From Pusillimonas sp. MFBS29 (GTDB lineage Bacteria > Pseudomonadota > Gammaproteobacteria > Burkholderiales > Burkholderiaceae_B), in assembly GCF_020687695.1 (NCBI RefSeq), contig NZ_JAJEWL010000002.1, positions 310,001-374,000 of the forward strand: a DNA stretch of 64,000 bases, in the 5' to 3' direction. The notes beneath the pieces were generated by a model that searched no databases, was not told the origin of the DNA, and saw only the letters and a list, made by a program, of their open reading frames with translations. Made by a program: the position numbers and the translations under genes. Within the stretch, counting starts at the first letter, position 1. Each line of letters begins with the position of its first letter. Below, piece after piece: positions 10,998 through 60,287 of the stretch.

Positions 10998-11852
10998 ATG
11001 TTAAAGCAGCGTGTCGTCACAGCGGTGATTCTGCTGGCAGTGTTGCTGGCTTCCTTGATGGCATCCAGCCCGTGGCCGCTGGTGCTGCTTTTTGTTCTGA
11101 CAGCCGTTTGTGCACTGTGGGAATGGTTGCGCCTGACGTGGCCCGGCGCAGGGCATGTCGTGCCTCCCGTTGCCGCTGCATTGTGTGGCATTGTGCTCCT
11201 GGGGTTGGCCTGGCAATGGCTTAATAAAGCATCCCCGACACCATCCATCCCGGCGCATTCCATATTTGGTGGATATTTGCTCCCCCTTGTTTCAGTCCTG
11301 TGGGTGGGGCTGGCAACGGCTCTGGTCGTCCAGGGCCAGGCCACGCGGCGCTCGGGCGGCGTTTGGCTTAGTCTGTTCGGCCTTCTGGCTGTCGTGGCCG
11401 TGTGGTTTGCACTGGTCCAGATGTATTTGCACCGAGGCGCCTGGTTTCTGGTGTCCCTGATGGCACTTATCTGGTTTGCGGATATTGCCGCCTACTTTAC
11501 CGGTAAGGCGTTTGGGCGCCACAAGCTTGCACCGCGGGTCAGTCCGGGAAAAACCTGGGAAGGTGCGGCGGGTGGTGTGCTGGCTGCAACGGCCTGGGTC
11601 TTGCTCAGCGCCTGGTGGCCAGGTAGTTTTGGCGATGCAATGCTGCAGCGCTGGCCCTGGTGGATGGTTGCCTTGATTGCCGTCTTTCTTGCTGCTCTGT
11701 CGATTATCGGCGACCTGTTCGAGTCGTTGCTCAAGCGCAGGGCGGGTGTCAAGGACTCCAGCCAGCTGCTGCCCGGTCACGGCGGCGTATACGATCGCAT
11801 CGACGCCTTGCTGCCCGTAGCCCCCATTGCACTGCTGATTACCGGAGTCTGA
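10998..11852 (+). CDS. cdsA: phosphatidate cytidylyltransferase (CDP-diglyceride synthase)
   Basis: 284 aa polytopic membrane protein with about eight hydrophobic segments. It makes CDP-diacylglycerol, the precursor of all phospholipids. The C-terminal signature is visible: [20 protein letters not shown] then GVYDR. An AGGGGGAGG ribosome-binding site precedes the ATG. The stop is five bases before the dxr start. Confidence 0.95.
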
Positions 11853-26201: not shown

Positions 26202-26804
26202 TCAGCGCGTGCTGCCGTAGGCATGCAGGAAAATATCTATGATGCAATCTGCCTTTTCCCTGGCCTCCGATGCGCTCATGCGCTGATGGGCACCCAGCAG
26301 GTTGCGTATCATTTCAGCCTCGCACAGGCAGCGCAGATGCATGGCCATCCTGTCGGCATCCACATCGCGCAAGCTGCCTTTTTTGATTTCCTCTTGCAGT
26401 TTGCTGGAGATTTCCGTCCAGACGTGCTGTGTGCCGCTTTCGTAGAAGCGCCGGCCCACGTCGGTGGTGCCGCCCACTGAAATGGCCACGCGCAGGATCT
26501 CTACGGTTTCGGGCGCGTTGACCAGCGTGAGCAACGAGGCCACGAAGCTATGCAATTGCTGGCTGAAATCACCTTCAGTCTGCAGCAATTGCAGGACATT
26601 CTCGGCGTGCTGCTCAGCCGAGTGCAGCATGGCCTCGAGCAGCAACTCTTCCTTCGACGAAAAATAGTTGTACAGCGTTGCCTTCGATCCGCCCACCCTT
26701 GCTGCGATCTGCGACATGGATGCGGCATCAAACCCCACTTCACGGAAAACTTCCAGGGCAACGCTCATGATTGCATCTTTTCGGGCTTCGCTCTTGGTTC
26801 TCAT
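26202..26804 (-). CDS. TetR/AcrR-family transcriptional repressor
   Basis: 200 aa. The N-terminal TetR helix-turn-helix lies at about residues 12-55 (SMSQIAARVGGSKATLYNYF). The C-terminal helical domain is TetR_C-like and probably binds the inducing ligand. It is divergent from an RND efflux operon, so repression of that operon and of itself is the natural inference. A palindrome at 26876-26890 is the likely operator. Confidence 0.92.
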   Translation of the reverse strand: MRTKSEARKDAIMSVALEVFREVGFDAASMSQIAARVGGSKATLYNYFSSKEELLLEAMLHSAEQHAENVLQLLQTEGDFSQQLHSFVASLLTLVNAPETVEILRVAISVGGTTDVGRRFYESGTQHVWTEISSKLQEEIKKGSLRDVDADRMAMHLRCLCEAEMIRNLLGAHQRMSASEAREKADCIIDIFLHAYGSTR

Positions 26805-26843: not shown

Positions 26844-26890
26844 CTTGACAGGAGGTTTTTGTCAAGCTTAAACTGACCGTACAGTACGGT
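26844..26890. promoter_or_regulatory. candidate divergent promoters and TetR operator
   Basis: CTTGACA (26844-26850) and TGTCAAG (26860-26866) form an inverted repeat, putting a TTGACA -35-like hexamer on each strand. Ten bases on, ACCGTACAGTACGGT (26876-26890) is a 15-base palindrome with one central base. A related half-site, CCGTACAG, lies at 26831-26838. This fits a TetR-family operator covering the efflux promoter. Confidence 0.6.
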
Positions 26891-26979: not shown

Positions 26980-28188
26980 ATGAAGCCCAGTTACCGATTT
27001 TCCCTCAGCAAAACCGCCGCGCTATTGGTGATGGCCGCCACACTGGCCGCTTGCGGCCAGCCCGAGCAGGCGCCACCGGCCGCCGCAGCCCCTGAAGTGG
27101 GGGTACATACCGTGCAGACCGAACCCCTGACCCTGGTCACGGTGTTGCCTGGCCGCAGCGCGGCGTTTCGCATCGCCGAAGTGCGGCCGCAGGTCAATGG
27201 CATAGTCGAGAAGCGATTGTTCGAGGAAGGGGCCGAAGTAGAGAAGGGGCAGCAGCTGTATCAGATCGACGATGCGGTGCATCAGGCCGAATATGATCGT
27301 GCCAGGGCCAATCTGGTTACGACCGAACGTCTGGCCAAACGCTATCAGCGCCTGCAGAAAACCAGCGCCATCAGTCAACAGCAGTATGACGACGCCATGG
27401 CCGCCTGGAAGCAGGCCCAGGCACAGGCCGAGCTGGCACGTATCAACGTGGTCTACACCAAGGTGCTTGCACCGATTTCGGGTCGGGCCGGGCGCTCCAC
27501 CGTTAGCGAGGGAGCGCTGGTGACCAATGGACAGGCCACGGAAATGGTGACCGTGCAGCAGATCGATCCCATTTATGTCGATGTGCAGCAGCCGGTGACC
27601 GAGGTGCTGCGCCTGCGCAAGGAAATGGCCAACGGCCGGCTTGAGCTGGCGGGTGCCGACCAGGCAAAAGCTTCCTTGCGTCTGGAGGACGGCAGTATCT
27701 ATCCGCATGCCGGCACATTGCAATTCTCGGAGGTCACGGTCGATCCTGGAACCAGCTCCGTCACTTTGCGGGCGGAGTTCCCCAATCCCGACGGCGATCT
27801 GCTGCCCGGTATGTTTGTCTAGGCGCAGTTGAACGAGGGTGTGCGCAACGATGCGCTCCTGGTGCCCCAGCAAGCCGTCATGCGTGACCAGAAAGGTGAT
27901 CCCTTCGTCTGGGTCGTGGACGCAGACAGCAAGGCGCAGCGGCGTTCCATCGTGACGCTCAGGACGGTGGGCAATCAGTGGCTGGTCGGTGGGGGACTGA
28001 GCAGTGGCGAGCAGGTAGTGACCGAGGGTGTGCAACGCGTGCGCCAGGACATGGAAGTGGTTGCCAAACCGGCCGAGAACGTATCGGTTGTGATGGACTT
28101 TTCCGATGTGGACGAGTCTGCTTCGGCTGCCCAAACCGAAGCAAAAGACCAGGCCGCAGTGTCCGGCAAGCCTGACACAAACGCTTAA
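26980..28188 (+). pseudogene. RND efflux periplasmic adaptor (AcrA/MexA-like) interrupted by an in-frame TAG
   Basis: The frame runs 26980-28188 but contains TAG at 27820-27822, after residue 280 (LLPGMFV-stop-AQLNEGV). The downstream part stays in the same frame and continues the adaptor's beta-barrel and membrane-proximal domains, so this is a nonsense change, not a frameshift. Upstream: signal peptide with lipobox LAAC (Cys25), lipoyl halves, and a coiled-coil hairpin at about 105-145. Full length would be about 402 residues. A CAG (Gln) or AAG (Lys) codon could become TAG by one change. It is a pseudogene, a suppressed gene or a base-call error; the intact acrB-like and outer-membrane genes argue against long decay. 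Confidence 0.85.
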
Positions 28189-28199
28189 GAGGACGCTGA

Positions 28200-31100
28200 A
28201 TGTCAAAGTTTTTCATAGACAGGCCCATTTTTGCCTGGGTCCTGGCCATCGTGATCATGCTGGCCGGTGCGTTGTCCATATTCGGCATGCCCGTGAACCA
28301 GTACCCCAATATCGCCGCGCCGGCCATTTCGGTGAGCGTGACCTATCCCGGTGCATCGGCACAAACCGTGCAAGATTCAGTGGTGCAGGTGATCGAGCAG
28401 AAAATGAACGGCCTGGATGGCTTGCGCTATATGTCTTCCGAAAGCAACTCGGACGGCAGCATGAGCATCATCCTGACCTTCGAGCAGGGCATTGACTCTG
28501 ATATTGCCCAGGTCCAGGTGCAGAACAAGCTGCAGCTGGCGACGCCGCTGTTGCCCGAAGAGGTGCAGCGCCAGGGCATACGCGTGGCCAAGCACCAATC
28601 CAACTTCATGCTGGTGGTGGGGCTGGTGGATGAAAGCGGACGCATGGATGCCGCCGACTTGTCCGACTACATCGCCACCAACTGGCAGGATTCGCTATCC
28701 CGTGTTGAAGGGGTGGGCGACTTCATGTTGTTCGGTTCGCAGTACGCCATGCGCATCTGGCTGGATCCGCAAAAGCTGAACAGCTTTGCGCTGACACCGG
28801 GCGATGTGGCCAATGCCATCCGCAGCCAGAACGTGCAGGTGTCTTCGGGCCAGTTGGGCGGCTTGCCGACCACCAAGGGCGTACAGCTGTCAGCCACCAT
28901 TATCGGCAAGACCCGTCTGCAGACCATCCCTCAGTTCGAAGACATTCTGCTCAAGGTCAACCCTGACGGTTCACAGGTTCGCTTGCGCGACGTGGCCAAA
29001 ATCAATCTGGGCGCCGAAAACTTTGCAATCTCGGGCCAGTACAACGGCAAGCCCTCGTCGGGCCTGGCCTTGCGCCTGGCCACGGGCGGCAACCTGCTGG
29101 ACACGGTCGAACGTGTGGAAGCCACCATTGCAAAACTCGAACCCTTCTTGCCGGACGGCCTGAAGATTACTTATCCCTACGACACCACGCCGGTCGTGGA
29201 GGCATCGATCGAATCGGTCGTGCACACCTTGTTTGAAGCCATTGTTCTGGTCTTCCTGGTGATGTATCTGTTCCTGCAGAATTTCCGGGCCACCCTGATA
29301 CCCACGCTGGCCGTGCCGGTGGTGTTGCTGGGCACCTTCGGAATTCTGTCTGCCTTCGGCTTTACCATCAATATCCTGACCATGTACGCCATGGTGCTGG
29401 CCATAGGCCTGCTGGTGGACGATGCCATTGTGGTGGTCGAGAACGTCGAGCGGGTGATGGTCGAAGAGAAACTCTCGGCCCGCGATGCCACCCGCAAGTC
29501 CATGGGGCAGATTCAGGGCGCGCTGGTGGGCATTGGCGTGGTGCTGTCCGCCGTGTTTGTGCCGATGGCATTCTTTGGCGGTTCGGCGGGTATTATCTAC
29601 AAGCAATTCGCCATTACCATCGTGTCGGCCATGGGCCTGTCGGTGCTGGTGGCACTGGTGTTTACGCCGGCCTTGTGCGCCACCATGCTCAAGCCTTCGG
29701 CAGCCGATCATCACAACAAAAAAGGATTCTTCGGCTGGTTCAACCGCATGTTCGATCGCGGCAACGACCGCTATCAGCGCGGCGTGTCGGGCATGATCAG
29801 GCATCGCGGGCGCTATATGGTGATCTTTCTGCTTATTGTCGGCGGCCTGGCGGTGCTGTTCACGCGCATTCCGACGACCTTCCTGCCGGAAGAAGATCAA
29901 TCCATCATGTTCGTACAGGTGCAGACGCCTGCCAACTCCAGCGCCGAGCGTACCCAGGCCGCTCTGGATGAAGTGAACCAGTACCTGCTTGAAGACGAAG
30001 CGGGCACGGTCGATTCCGTCATGGCGGTCAAGGGCTTCAGCTTTGCCGGGCGCGGCCAGAACTCGGGCGTTGCATTCGTCAAGCTCAAGTCCTGGGAAGA
30101 TCGTCAGGGCGACGCTACCGACGTATTCAGCCTGACACAGCGGGCCAATGCGCGCCTGTCCCGGATCACGGATGCGACCGCGTTTGCCTTCGTGCCGCCC
30201 GCCATTATTGAAATGGGTAACGCCACCGGTTTTGACTTCTACCTGCAGAACATGGGCGGCCTGAGTCACGACGAAATGATGGCCGCGCGCGACCAGCTGC
30301 TGCAGCTGGCTGCCCAGGACCCGGCGCTGATGATGGTGCGCCACAACGGCCTGAGCGACGAACCGCAATACCAGGTGTTGATCGACGATGAAAAAGTTCG
30401 CGCGTTGCAGCTGAACCTGTCCGATGTCAATGAAACGATGTCCGCCGCCTGGGGTTCCATGTATGTGAATGATTTCCTCGATCGCGGCCGGGTCAAGCGT
30501 GTGTATATCCAGGGCGAGATGGATTCACGTCTTGCACCCGAGGATTTCGGCAAGTGGTATGTGCGCAATGCCGAAGGCGATATGGTGCCGTTCTCGGCCT
30601 TCGCCACCGGCGAATGGACTTACGGCTCGCCCAAGCTGCAACGCTTCAACGGCGTACCGGCCATACAGATACAGGGCGCGCCCGCGCCTGGATACAGCAC
30701 GGGCGAGGCCATGCAAGCGGTCGAACGCCTGGTTGACCAACTGCCTGAAGGTGTGGACATCGCGTATAACGGCCTGTCATACGAAGAGCGCCAGACCGGT
30801 TCGCAGGCCCCCATGCTTTATGCCCTGACGGTGCTGATCGTGTTCCTGAGCTTGGCCGCGCTGTATGAAAGCTGGTCGGTGCCGGCCTCCGTCATGCTGG
30901 TGGTGCCGCTCGGCGTGATCGGGGCTGTCATCGCCACCTTGCTCAGGGGCTTGTCCAACGACGTTTTCTTCCAGATCGGTTTGCTGACCACGGTGGGCCT
31001 GTCGGCCAAGAACGCGATCCTGATCGTGGAGTTTGCCAAGCAGCTTTACGAGCAGGAAGGGCGCACGCTGGTCCAGGCCGCTGTTGAGGCAGCCAGGCTG

Positions 31101-31346
31101 CGCCTGAGACCCATCATCATGACCTCGCTGGCCTTTACCTTCGGTGTATTGCCCATGGCGCTGGCCAGCGGAGCCGGCGAAGGCAGCCAGCACGCCATCG
31201 CCACTGGCGTGGTGGGCGGCATGATCACGGCGACAGTGCTGGCCATATTCTTCATCCCGCTGTTCTTTGTGGTGGTGATGTCGTTGACGAAGAAAAAATC
31301 ATCGGTGGCCGGCAGTCAGCCCGCCCTGGAAGGAGCGCAGTCATGA
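28200..31346 (+). CDS. RND multidrug efflux pump, inner-membrane transporter (AcrB/MexB-like, HAE1)
   Basis: 1048 aa, the normal HAE1 length. The start [20 protein letters not shown] is typical. The proton-relay residues are visible: adjacent Asp in [18 protein letters not shown] (TM4) and Lys in [13 protein letters not shown] (TM10). Twelve membrane segments and two large periplasmic loops are expected. It would form a tripartite pump with the adaptor upstream and the outer-membrane channel downstream. It starts 11 bases after the adaptor and overlaps the channel gene by ATGA. Confidence 0.96.
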
Positions 31347-32785
31347 GATTTGCAATGATCACGTCGGGGGTGGCCATCAGCGTGCTGTTGCAAGCCTGCT
31401 CCATGACGCCCAAGTACGAACAGCCGGCCCAGCCGGTGGAAACGGCGGCCTGGCCGCAGGGGCAGGCCTATGGTGAAGCGCCGGCACAAGAGGGCAGGGC
31501 TGCAGCCGATATAGGCTGGCAGACTTTCTTCAAGGATCCCGCCCTGAAGCGGCTGATTGCCGTTGCCCTGGACAACAACCGTGATTTGCGTGTGGCCGCC
31601 CTGACGGTCGATGCTTATCGGGCCCAGTACCGTATTCAGCGTTCCGAGCTGTTCCCCACGCTGGATGCGGCGGGCAATGGCAGCCGCCAGCGCCTGCCGG
31701 CCGACTTGTCGCCCGCCGGTGTGGCGGGCATTTCCTCGCAATATGACGTGGGCGCGGCCATGTCGTACGAACTGGATTTCTTTGGCCGGGTTCGCAGCCT
31801 GAACCAGCAGGCCCTGGAAGAATACCTGGCGACCGGGCAGGCACAGCGCAGCGTCCATATAAGCCTTGTGGCCGATGTGGCACAGGCCTATCTGGCCTGG
31901 CAAGCCGATCAGGCATTGCTGGAGGTGGCGCAGCGCACGCTGCAGACCAACGAGAAAACGCTGGCCTTGATACAAAGCAGCTTCGATGTGGGTGTGGCCT
32001 CGGCACTGGAGGTGCGCCAGGCGCGCACCACAGTGGACGAAGCGCGTGCCTACGTGCAGCGCTATACACGCCAGGTGGCGGTGGATGTGAACGGCCTCAG
32101 GATGCTGATGGGTGGTCCATTGCCCGCCGATATGCCGCAGGGCCTGAAGCTGGACAGCCAGGTATTTGCCGCCGTGCCGGCCGGCCTGCCTTCCGATTTG
32201 ATGCAGCGCAGGCCCGATATCCTGGCAGCCGAGCATCGCCTGATCGGGGCCAATGCCAATATCGGCGCGGCTCGTGCCGCGTTCTTTCCGCGCATCAGCC
32301 TGACCGGTGCTGCGGGTACCGCCAGTTCGCAAATGTCCGGCTTGTTTGAAGGCGGTTCCGGAACCTGGTCCTTCATGCCCGGCATCTCCGTTCCCATTTT
32401 CAATGCCGGCCGCCTGCGCGCCAATCTGGATTACGCCGAAATCCAGAGTGATATTCGTGTGGCCCAGTATGAGCAGGCCATACAGAACGCTTTTCGCGAA
32501 GTCTCGGACAGCCTGGCCGCACGCGGCACCTACGGCAAACAGCTGCAAGCACAGCGCGAACTGGTTGAAAATACCAGCGAGTATTTCAAACTGGCCCAAC
32601 AGCGTTACGATGAAGGGGTGGACAGCTATCTGAACGTGCTGGATGCCCAGCGTTTGCTGTTCACTTCGCAGCAGCAGTATATTCAGGATCGTCTGGCACA
32701 GTTGAACAGCGAGGTCGATCTGTATAAGGCGTTGGGCGGCGGCTGGCTGGAAACCGATGCTGCGAATGTCGTACATTCCGGCTAG
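31343..32785 (+). CDS. outer-membrane efflux channel lipoprotein (OprM/NodT family)
   Basis: 480 aa. It starts inside an ATGA overlap with the pump gene. The signal peptide ends in a lipobox (LLQAC, Cys19). Two tandem TolC-like repeats follow, with the repeated alpha-helical barrel and [21 protein letters not shown] typical of NodT proteins. It exports pump substrates across the outer membrane. It is the third gene of the tetR-linked operon. Confidence 0.94.
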
Positions 32786-50177: not shown

Positions 50178-50954
50178 TCAGTCCCAGTAGCCCGGTTTGT
50201 CGTAATGCTGATGCAGACGTAACTCGTAGTCGCGGTCCAGTGCAGCGTCTTCGTCATATTCGGGGCTGTTCTTGATCTGATCCCGTGTAAGAGACGTCTG
50301 GACCATAGATCCATTCCAGTCGATGCTGTCTATCCATTGGCTACCCAGCAATACCTTTTTGCCGCCCGGCCACCAGTTGCGGGTATCAACCAGCAGATAG
50401 CGAACAGCCCAGTCTTTGTCATCGAAGAGGAAGTCCTCGACATGACCGATTTCGCTGTCTGTTCCGGCAATCTGGTAACCACTCACATCCTTGCTGCTGC
50501 GCAGATGTACGTCCTCTGGATGCTCTGCAGCGCGCGCCGCGATCACTTCGGGCGGCTCATTTATGGCAGACCGATCCGCCTCGACATCCAGCCCGACCGG
50601 ATAGGTGCTCGTACCCCAAAGATAGGGGCCGGCCCAATAATTGCCAAAGCCGTAGTAACTCGAGTACTCACCTTCAAGCAGACGGGATACGGGTTTATGC
50701 GTGTCGATGTCGGGGCTATTCTTCACCTGTTCACGTGTCAGCGACACATGAACCAATTCGCCCAGATCGTCGACACCGGTAATGGAGTAGGGCGAGATCA
50801 GAACGATACGACTGGATAGCCATGTGCCGGTCTCGACGACCAGATATCGCACACCCCAACGCTCATCATCAAAATAAACTTCCTTCACCTTGCCCAGCTC
50901 ATCGTCGGTGGCCCTGATGGCGTAACCTTTAAGACTATTTACCGTGCGTAACAT
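50178..50954 (-). CDS. PRC-barrel protein with two PRC domains
   Basis: 258 aa from the ATG at 50954, which follows a good AAGGAGAT site; the frame is open upstream to 51011. Two PRC-barrel domains are visible, near residues 1-80 (GKVKEVYFDDERWGVRYLVV) and 145-225 (GHVEDFLFDDKDWAVRYLLV). A Tyr/Gly-rich linker (YYGFGNYWAGPY) separates them. Such proteins occur in many soil bacteria and are often stress-induced. Function unknown. Confidence 0.85.
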   Translation of the reverse strand: MLRTVNSLKGYAIRATDDELGKVKEVYFDDERWGVRYLVVETGTWLSSRIVLISPYSITGVDDLGELVHVSLTREQVKNSPDIDTHKPVSRLLEGEYSSYYGFGNYWAGPYLWGTSTYPVGLDVEADRSAINEPPEVIAARAAEHPEDVHLRSSKDVSGYQIAGTDSEIGHVEDFLFDDKDWAVRYLLVDTRNWWPGGKKVLLGSQWIDSIDWNGSMVQTSLTRDQIKNSPEYDEDAALDRDYELRLHQHYDKPGYWD

Positions 50955-54609: not shown

Positions 54610-55485
54610 GTGCACGATCTTGTCATCGAAACCAGAGAGCACGACCTGGGCGGAGGATTCAAAGTCGGTCGCGTGCTGCCGTTCCGGCAACGGCGTATGG
54701 TGGGGCCCTTCATTTTCTTTGACCGCATGGGGCCACATGATCTGCCTGCTCCGATCCCCCAGCGCATTGATGTACGGCCGCACCCGCATATCGGCCTGTC
54801 TACAGTCACTTACCTGTTCGAGGGCCAGATGACGCATCGGGACAGCCTGGGCGTAGAGCAGGATATTCTGCCTGGCGCGCTGAACTGGATGACGGCGGGT
54901 TCGGGCATCAGTCATTCCGAGCGATTTGACGGCATGCGTTCCCAGGGTGGTCGCATGGATGGCATACAGGCATGGGTAGCTGTCCCCGAAGCCAATGAAG
55001 AAGATGCACCGGCCTTTGACCATTATGCGTCCGACGCACTGCCGTTATTCAGCGAGAACGGCATGTCGGGGCGCCTGATTGCCGGGAGTGCCTTTGGCAT
55101 GAGTAGCCCCGCCAAAACTCACTCGCCCCTGTTCTACGCCGATGTTGCGCTGCAGTCTGATGCCCGCATGGCGCTTCCGGCCGAGCATCCGGAGCGAGCG
55201 GCTTATATTGTCAGCGGCCTCGTCGAGCACGAGGGGCAACGATATAAGGCAGGTCAGATGCTGGTATTCGCACCCGGGGGTGCTCCCGAGCTTAAAGCGC
55301 TGGGCAATGCCCGCCTGATGGTGCTGGGCGGCGAACCGCTGGGTACACGCCATATATGGTGGAACTTTGTCTCGTCGCGCAAAGAACGCATAGAGCAGGC
55401 CAAGGCCGACTGGCTGGCCGGTCGCATTGCCTTGCCCGAGCACGACAGCAGCGAATTCATCCCCTTGCCGCAAACGGTGGCTTAA
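54610..55485 (+). CDS. pirin family protein
   Basis: 291 aa, starting at GTG four bases after GGAGG. Bicupin fold: the N-terminal cupin contains the metal-ligand stretch RPHPHIGLSTVTYLFEG and the family motif SGISHSER. Bacterial pirins include quercetin dioxygenases and redox-responsive regulators of pyruvate metabolism; which applies is not known here. Its 3' end overlaps the convergent glycosyltransferase gene by 29 bases. The FNR-type box lies upstream. Confidence 0.92.
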   Translation: MHDLVIETREHDLGGGFKVGRVLPFRQRRMVGPFIFFDRMGPHDLPAPIPQRIDVRPHPHIGLSTVTYLFEGQMTHRDSLGVEQDILPGALNWMTAGSGISHSERFDGMRSQGGRMDGIQAWVAVPEANEEDAPAFDHYASDALPLFSENGMSGRLIAGSAFGMSSPAKTHSPLFYADVALQSDARMALPAEHPERAAYIVSGLVEHEGQRYKAGQMLVFAPGGAPELKALGNARLMVLGGEPLGTRHIWWNFVSSRKERIEQAKADWLAGRIALPEHDSSEFIPLPQTVA

Positions 55486-59633: not shown

Positions 59634-60206
59634 TTATTGTGTGGCGACAATATTAAATTTGATGTCGATCTCGTTGGCGACAATGCTGAAATCCTTCCAT
59701 TGGCCTTCGCCTACGGCAAAGTCGGCACGCTGGAATGTGAAATTACCTTTGAATACGCCGGCATCGCCGTCCTCTTCAAATGTGAAAGGAACCATCACTT
59801 CTTTGGTAGTGCCCTTGATGGACAGATCGCCACTCACTTCATAAGTGCCGTCGCCCGTAACCTGTACCTGCCTGGACACAAAGGTGGCCAAGGGATGTTG
59901 CCCCAGCGCCAGCCATTCGTCTTTCTCGAGCTCGGCGTTGGCTTCGTCGTAGCCGGCATCTATGCTGGCCAGCGTGATTTCAATGGCGACCCTGGCAGCT
60001 TGCGGATTCTTTGGATCAAAGCTGAATTCCGTGGCATTGATCTGACTGAAGCTGCCATCCATCTTTACGCTCATCTGGCTATACCCGAACGTTACAGTGC
60101 TGGCCTCGGAATCCAGGGCCGTATACTGCGCCGCGTGGGCGCCGCCAAACGCGCCCAAGGTGAGGGCGGTAGCGAACGCCAGCCGGCGCAGAATCTTGGC
60201 ATTCAT
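59634..60206 (-). CDS. YceI family periplasmic protein (2)
   Basis: 190 aa from the ATG at 60206, preceded by GGAGAG; an in-frame ATG at 60218 is less likely. A signal peptide (TLGAFGGAHA) is followed by a YceI barrel (TALDSEASTVTFGYSQM). It is distinct from the neighbour in sequence but of the same family. The pair is divergent from a LysR regulator and may be under its control. Confidence 0.93.
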   Translation of the reverse strand: MNAKILRRLAFATALTLGAFGGAHAAQYTALDSEASTVTFGYSQMSVKMDGSFSQINATEFSFDPKNPQAARVAIEITLASIDAGYDEANAELEKDEWLALGQHPLATFVSRQVQVTGDGTYEVSGDLSIKGTTKEVMVPFTFEEDGDAGVFKGNFTFQRADFAVGEGQWKDFSIVANEIDIKFNIVATQ

Positions 60207-60287
60207 ATTGCTCTCCATGAAACTGATTTCTATTTAACATCAGCAGTTTATTAAATTTTAAAATGCAGAAAAACCCCATGTTTTAAC

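What the first reader, a model, noticed from the sequence alone, without database searches (positions are those of the whole stretch)
27820..27822. In-frame amber codon in an otherwise intact RND efflux adaptor gene
TAG at codon 281 splits an AcrA-like frame that continues in phase to 28188 with clear adaptor homology. The pump (1048 aa) and outer-membrane genes are intact, as is the TetR regulator. The interruption falls before the last barrel strands and the membrane-proximal domain, so the 280-aa product should not assemble a pump. It is either a very recent loss, a strain with amber suppression, or a base-call error.
Basis: partly seen in the sequence, partly recalled or inferred. Interest (0 to 1): 0.65.

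Follow-up and report, generated by a model that had tools for sequence, protein, structure and literature searches.

The report
Broken drug-efflux adaptor gene
A bacterium carries an otherwise intact multidrug-efflux operon whose connecting protein is cut short by a stop codon; the sister species has broken the same gene in a different way, so this looks like an ordinary, recent and repeated loss rather than a new genetic trick.

Summary
The TAG at 27820-27822 is real in the assembled sequence: codon 281 of a 402-codon MexA/AcrA-type adaptor frame that stays open downstream. TetR regulator, pump and outer-membrane genes are open. Amber suppression is not supported: none of 44 tRNA genes found has a CTA anticodon, RF1 is present, and TAG ends 8 of 59 window genes. 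New here: in sister species G002 the syntenic operon has an open pump (91% identical) and channel, but its adaptor has lost a different stretch (net 659 bp), out of frame. Neither lesion can derive from the other. Upstream of 97 related pumps in the family, 94 adaptors show no stop or frame break in the matched stretch; broken are this one, G002 and G261. Between G000 and G002 the adaptor tail is about as constrained as an intact control adaptor (pN/pS 0.273 in both), so the losses look recent. Best reading: recent, parallel loss of function through the adaptor of an efflux system, like the known mtrC losses in Neisseria. A base-call error in this genome cannot be excluded without reads; efflux was not measured. 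Low to moderate interest.

The parts
26202..26804 (-). TetR-family regulator (TetR_N + AefR-like TetR_C_7), divergent from the operon, open
   Evidence: 81% identical to the G002 copy
26876..26890 (.). 15-base near-palindrome between TetR and adaptor, identical in G002; probably the TetR operator (role inferred)
26980..27822 (+). adaptor gene up to the stop, 280-aa product; lipoprotein-type signal seen by eye; HlyD_D23 and HlyD_3 matches end at 280 and 277
27820..27822 (+). in-frame TAG, codon 281
27823..28188 (+). rest of the adaptor frame behind the stop (end of barrel, C-terminal part of the membrane-proximal domain), still open
28200..31346 (+). RND pump, AcrB/MexB type, 1048 aa, open
31343..32785 (+). 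outer-membrane channel (NodT/OprM type), 480 aa, open

Best explanation
It is a recent loss-of-function (null) allele of the adaptor of a MexAB-OprM/AcrAB-TolC-type operon. Translation ends at the TAG. The 280-aa product lacks the C-terminal part that makes most of the membrane-proximal domain, so it should not couple pump to outer-membrane channel and the tripartite pump should be inactive. The sister species G002 lost the same gene independently through an out-of-frame deletion, so in this lineage the system is, or became, dispensable and is being lost through its adaptor, while the pump and channel genes have not yet decayed. Shown: the stop, the second lesion, open neighbours, constraint like that of a control operon, no amber tRNA among those found. 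Inferred: loss of efflux, dispensability.
For: TAG in an otherwise open adaptor frame. Independent lesion in G002: about 41 codons at the front and 143 at the end remain, a net 659 bp is missing between them (hand arithmetic) and the joint is out of frame; pump 91% and outer-membrane gene 88% identical and open. G000 keeps the stretch that G002 lost, and G002 has a sense codon where G000 has TAG, so the common ancestor was intact. Survey: upstream of 97 related pumps, 94 adaptors have no stop or frame break in the matched stretch; broken are G000, G002 and G261. Tail pN/pS between G000 and G002 0.273 [0.192-0.395] against 0.273 [0.198-0.358] for the same region of the control adaptor; pump 0.092 against 0.085. 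No CTA anticodon among 44 tRNA genes, RF1 present, TAG ends 8 of 59 genes. A review passage calls the membrane-proximal domain essential for assembly and function of AcrAB-TolC (PMC8277102).
Against: No reads, no second strain of the species and no expression data, so a base-call error in G000 stays possible. The tail still looks constrained, with no sign of decay: expected if the loss is recent, but equally expected if there is no loss. With the variable C-terminus left out, the tail ratio is 0.215 [0.120-0.334] against 0.182 [0.107-0.284] in the control, slightly higher but within error. Up to codon 280 the frame has more changes at conserved columns than most homologues (8 of 110; 2 of 38 homologues reach that), which may be lineage distance or earlier relaxation. 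Loss of efflux is not measured.
Confidence: 0.78

Rival explanations
1. Base-call or assembly error: the strain has a normal adaptor and a working pump.
For: One interrupted codon in a 29-contig draft genome, no other lesion in the frame, tail under normal constraint.
Against: G002, a two-contig assembly, has an independent lesion in the same gene. The scan against G002 found no other window gene interrupted by a stop, with one gene of different length not followed up, so errors of this kind are rare here and one would have had to hit the gene that is broken in the sister.
Confidence: 0.15
2. Amber suppression or recoding: TAG is read through and a full adaptor is made.
For: The frame stays open after the stop.
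Against: 44 tRNA genes, none with anticodon CTA. A narrow CTA-loop pattern gave 11 hits, fewer than its reversed control; ARAGORN found no tRNA at the 8 kept as loci and only a TCA tRNA on contig C14, which holds a ninth; two on C16 were not checked. RF1 present; 8 of 59 window genes end in TAG.
Confidence: 0.02
3. The pump and channel stay in use with another adaptor, for example the 47% identical one of the operon 50 kb upstream; the own adaptor became redundant and was then lost twice. (Compatible with the adaptor being null, so it overlaps with the best explanation.)
For: Pump pN/pS 0.092 and channel 0.104 between G000 and G002, not clearly looser than in the control operon (0.085, 0.164). 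Uninterrupted paralogous adaptors exist in both genomes. One adaptor serving two pumps is known: AcrAB and AcrAD complexes are listed in a PMC8277102 passage.
Against: The same constraint is expected if the losses are simply recent; the adaptor tail is no looser than its control either. No direct evidence of pairing.
Confidence: 0.12
4. The downstream 119-codon stretch is translated on its own (TTG at 27829) and works as part of a split adaptor.
For: Tail open in both G000 and G002, constraint like the control.
Against: No signal sequence seen by eye; in G002 the front reading frame is only 50 codons, which leaves nothing adaptor-like to pair with; recent loss explains the constraint; reinitiation not shown.
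Confidence: 0.02

Closest known systems
MexAB-OprM / AcrAB-TolC (HAE-1 RND multidrug efflux operons)
   Same: Adaptor, pump and channel genes in a row with a divergent TetR gene, as next to acrAB (recalled); best solved-structure match of the adaptor is MexA; pump and channel pass the TIGR00915 and TIGR01845 cut-offs.
   Different: The adaptor ends at codon 281; function not shown; the proteins do not reach the cut-offs of the exact MexA, AcrA or AcrB models.
mtrC loss-of-function alleles in Neisseria gonorrhoeae (PMC7431566; start of abstract and passages seen)
   Same: Recurrent truncation of one gene, mtrC, of an RND operon; the paper counts 185 isolates (3.82%) with an mtrC loss-of-function allele. 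That MtrC is the adaptor is recalled.
   Different: There mainly frameshifts in short repeats, enriched in cervical isolates, chiefly in one species (a passage also reports the same frameshift in a meningococcal clade). Here a nonsense codon and a large deletion in two other species, with no known selective cause.

Membership tests
HAE-1 type tripartite RND efflux operon | HAE-1 pump of about 1,000-1,050 aa | tested here: met
   1048 aa, TIGR00915 1734.9 bits against cut-off 940.35
HAE-1 type tripartite RND efflux operon | outer-membrane channel gene | tested here: met
   TIGR01845 450.4 bits against cut-off 210.05
HAE-1 type tripartite RND efflux operon | complete periplasmic adaptor | tested here: not met
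   the 280-aa product reaches only position 240 of 322 of TIGR01730, though above its cut-off (179 against 94.9 bits); the read-through frame reaches 321
HAE-1 type tripartite RND efflux operon | efflux activity | not testable with these tools
   no assay
pseudogene / null allele | disrupting lesion absent from homologues | tested here: met
   sense codon in 38 of 38 and in 92 of 93, one gap
pseudogene / null allele | relaxed constraint after the lesion | tested here: not met
   tail pN/pS like the control (0.273 both; 0.215 against 0.182 without the C-terminus); expected if the loss is recent
pseudogene / null allele | lesion confirmed by reads or a second strain | not testable with these tools
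   no reads or second strain at hand
amber-recoded gene | CTA-anticodon tRNA or loss of RF1 | tested here: not met
   two of 11 pattern hits not checked

The most novel reading that the evidence does not exclude
In this lineage the MexB-like pump and its channel have been handed over to another adaptor (for example the paralogue 50 kb away), making the own adaptor redundant, so that two sister species lost only the adaptor while selection still keeps pump and channel: adaptor swapping caught in progress.
Probability: 0.1. Interest if true: 0.45.

Novelty: new member of a known kind. Interest (0 to 1): 0.28.

Why it matters
If the stop is real, the same efflux adaptor was lost twice, independently and recently, in sister species while the rest of the operon stayed open. 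That parallels the known mtrC losses and suggests that tripartite pumps can be switched off through the adaptor. It also warns that an intact pump gene in a genome is no proof of working efflux.

Tried and rejected
Amber suppression: rejected. Split adaptor by reinitiation: considered, no support. Shared ancestral lesion: rejected, because G000 keeps what G002 lost and the reverse. G003's adaptor (49%) and pump (62%) as syntenic orthologues: rejected by eye from the neighbouring frames.

Excess decay at conserved columns: against 93 family homologues G000 looked divergent before the stop (16 of 108; 1 of 93 reach that) and after it (4 of 20; 6 of 92 reach that), but that set is another clade of adaptors with a longer hairpin (seen in the L243 alignment), so I set it aside (which ended in a script error after most of its output). 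Against 38 MexA-like homologues: before the stop 8 of 110 columns (2 of 38 reach that), or 3 of 92 at the stricter 95% setting (6 of 38); after it 1 of 26 (9 of 38), or 1 of 20 (2 of 38). No clear sign of decay.

Window-against-G002 scan: two first versions flagged many antisense shadow frames and were replaced by a non-overlap version (ATG starts, at least 80 codons). There the window-to-G002 direction flagged 1 of 61, the adaptor. The other direction flagged 5 of 59: the adaptor; three with a longer start choice in G002, whose window genes are open and match over their full length in the first direction (10998-11852, 50178-50954, 54697-55485); and one gene that is shorter in the window (59634-60218, 194 against 329 codons), perhaps a truncation, not followed up.

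The G002 contig length of 3,883,605 bp agrees with my recollection of Pusillimonas sp. T7-7; I saw only that a genome paper exists (reference list passage of PMC3156400), passages of PMC3669393 without a length, and the genome paper itself is not held.

Full report
Observation. The window lies in G000:C2:310001-374000, a 3.42-Mb draft genome in 29 contigs. The frame 26980-28188 reads as one 402-codon adaptor with TAG at codon 281 and no other internal stop. It matches solved MexA over residues 25-372, across the stop. The Pfam matches HlyD_D23 and HlyD_3 end at residues 280 and 277, and the part behind the stop gives a CusB_dom_1 match. [quoted passage not shown]

Surroundings. A divergent TetR gene (26202-26804, minus strand), an intergenic near-palindrome at 26876-26890 that is identical in the sister species, a 1048-aa pump and a 480-aa outer-membrane gene are open.

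Sister species. The genus has three other species held. G002 has the operon in the same place; its pump is 91%, its outer-membrane gene 88% and its TetR 81% identical, all open. Its adaptor is also broken, by another route: about 41 codons at the front and 143 at the end remain, with a net 659 bp missing between them (hand arithmetic), which puts the two parts out of frame; the front frame ends after 50 codons. G002 has a sense codon at the position of the TAG, and G000 has the stretch missing from G002. The lesions are therefore independent and the common ancestor was intact. G003 has a 62% pump with an uninterrupted adaptor in another neighbourhood; in G001 the best pump match is 48%.

How common. 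A pump search over 250 genomes drawn from the family, scoring at most three candidates a genome, gave 99 matches of at least 1,223 bits. I read the upstream stretch of 97; left out were one at a contig edge (G160) and one 55% match (G119:C14). All 97 have an adaptor match. 94 have no stop or frame break over the matched stretch, one of them cut by a contig edge (L284). Three are broken: G000, G002, and L243 of G261 with one stop. The genomes are related, so this is no count of independent events, and single stops in the others were not checked by reads either. G227 has a stop inside the pump (residue 213) with an uninterrupted adaptor; G211 was flagged for a TGA in the pump, but the match, up to residue 1016, has none.

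Age of the loss. Between G000 and G002 the adaptor tail has pN/pS 0.273 (0.192-0.395); the same region of the adaptor in the operon 50 kb upstream, taken as control, has 0.273 (0.198-0.358). Without the variable C-terminus the values are 0.215 and 0.182, with overlapping intervals. The pump has 0.092 against 0.085, the outer-membrane gene 0.104 against 0.164. Neither the tail, the pump nor the channel shows clear relaxation. By hand and roughly: if the tail had drifted neutrally in one species, that phase could fill no more than about a third of its branch.

Sequencing error. No reads are at hand. In the scan against G002 the adaptor was the only one of 61 window frames flagged; in the other direction 5 of 59 were flagged, of which three are start-choice effects and one is a gene shorter in the window that was not followed up. 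A random error would have had to fall in the gene that is broken in the sister.

Suppression. The Rfam tRNA search gives 44 tRNA genes; ARAGORN on all 44 gives no CTA anticodon. A narrow pattern for CTA loops followed by a T-arm gave 11 hits against 76 for its reversed control; ARAGORN found no tRNA at the 8 for which loci were kept; on contig C14, which holds a ninth, it found only a TCA tRNA; two on C16 were not checked. RF1 is present. TAG ends 8 of 59 window genes.

Interpretation. The best account is a recent null allele of the adaptor, the second in this lineage. What makes the system dispensable is unknown. The closest known parallel is recurrent mtrC loss in gonococci (PMC7431566, start of abstract and passages). 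A bolder account, that the pump now works with another adaptor, is not excluded but has no positive evidence.

Literature. Searches for natural adaptor nonsense or pseudogene cases (1 paper, listing and start of abstract only) and for Pusillimonas with RND efflux (4 papers, listing and starts of abstracts only) showed nothing on this operon in what I saw; I claim no more than that.

Noticed in passing
G000:C14:18842-18915 (L172 73-146; L182 842-915): A 74-nt tRNA gene with anticodon TCA (would read UGA), called SeC by ARAGORN although short for selC (length recalled). Neighbours recognised by eye: a metal P-type ATPase, lspA, an IS66-like transposase and an Lnt-like gene. Copies 96-97% identical, all with TCA, lie in four other genomes (G002, G003, G118, G124; three genera with this one's own) with flanks about 94-95% identical: possibly a mobile UGA-suppressor tRNA.
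   Followed up: partly
G000 whole genome: No tRNA-Ser with anticodon TGA among the 44 tRNA genes found; perhaps in an assembly gap or below the search threshold.
   Followed up: no
L243 (G261 adaptor) and L272 (G227 pump, residue 213): Single nonsense codons in other RND operons of the family.
   Followed up: partly
window 59634-60218 (minus strand): Gene of 194 codons in the window matching part of a 329-codon gene in G002; possible truncation in one or extension in the other.
   Followed up: no
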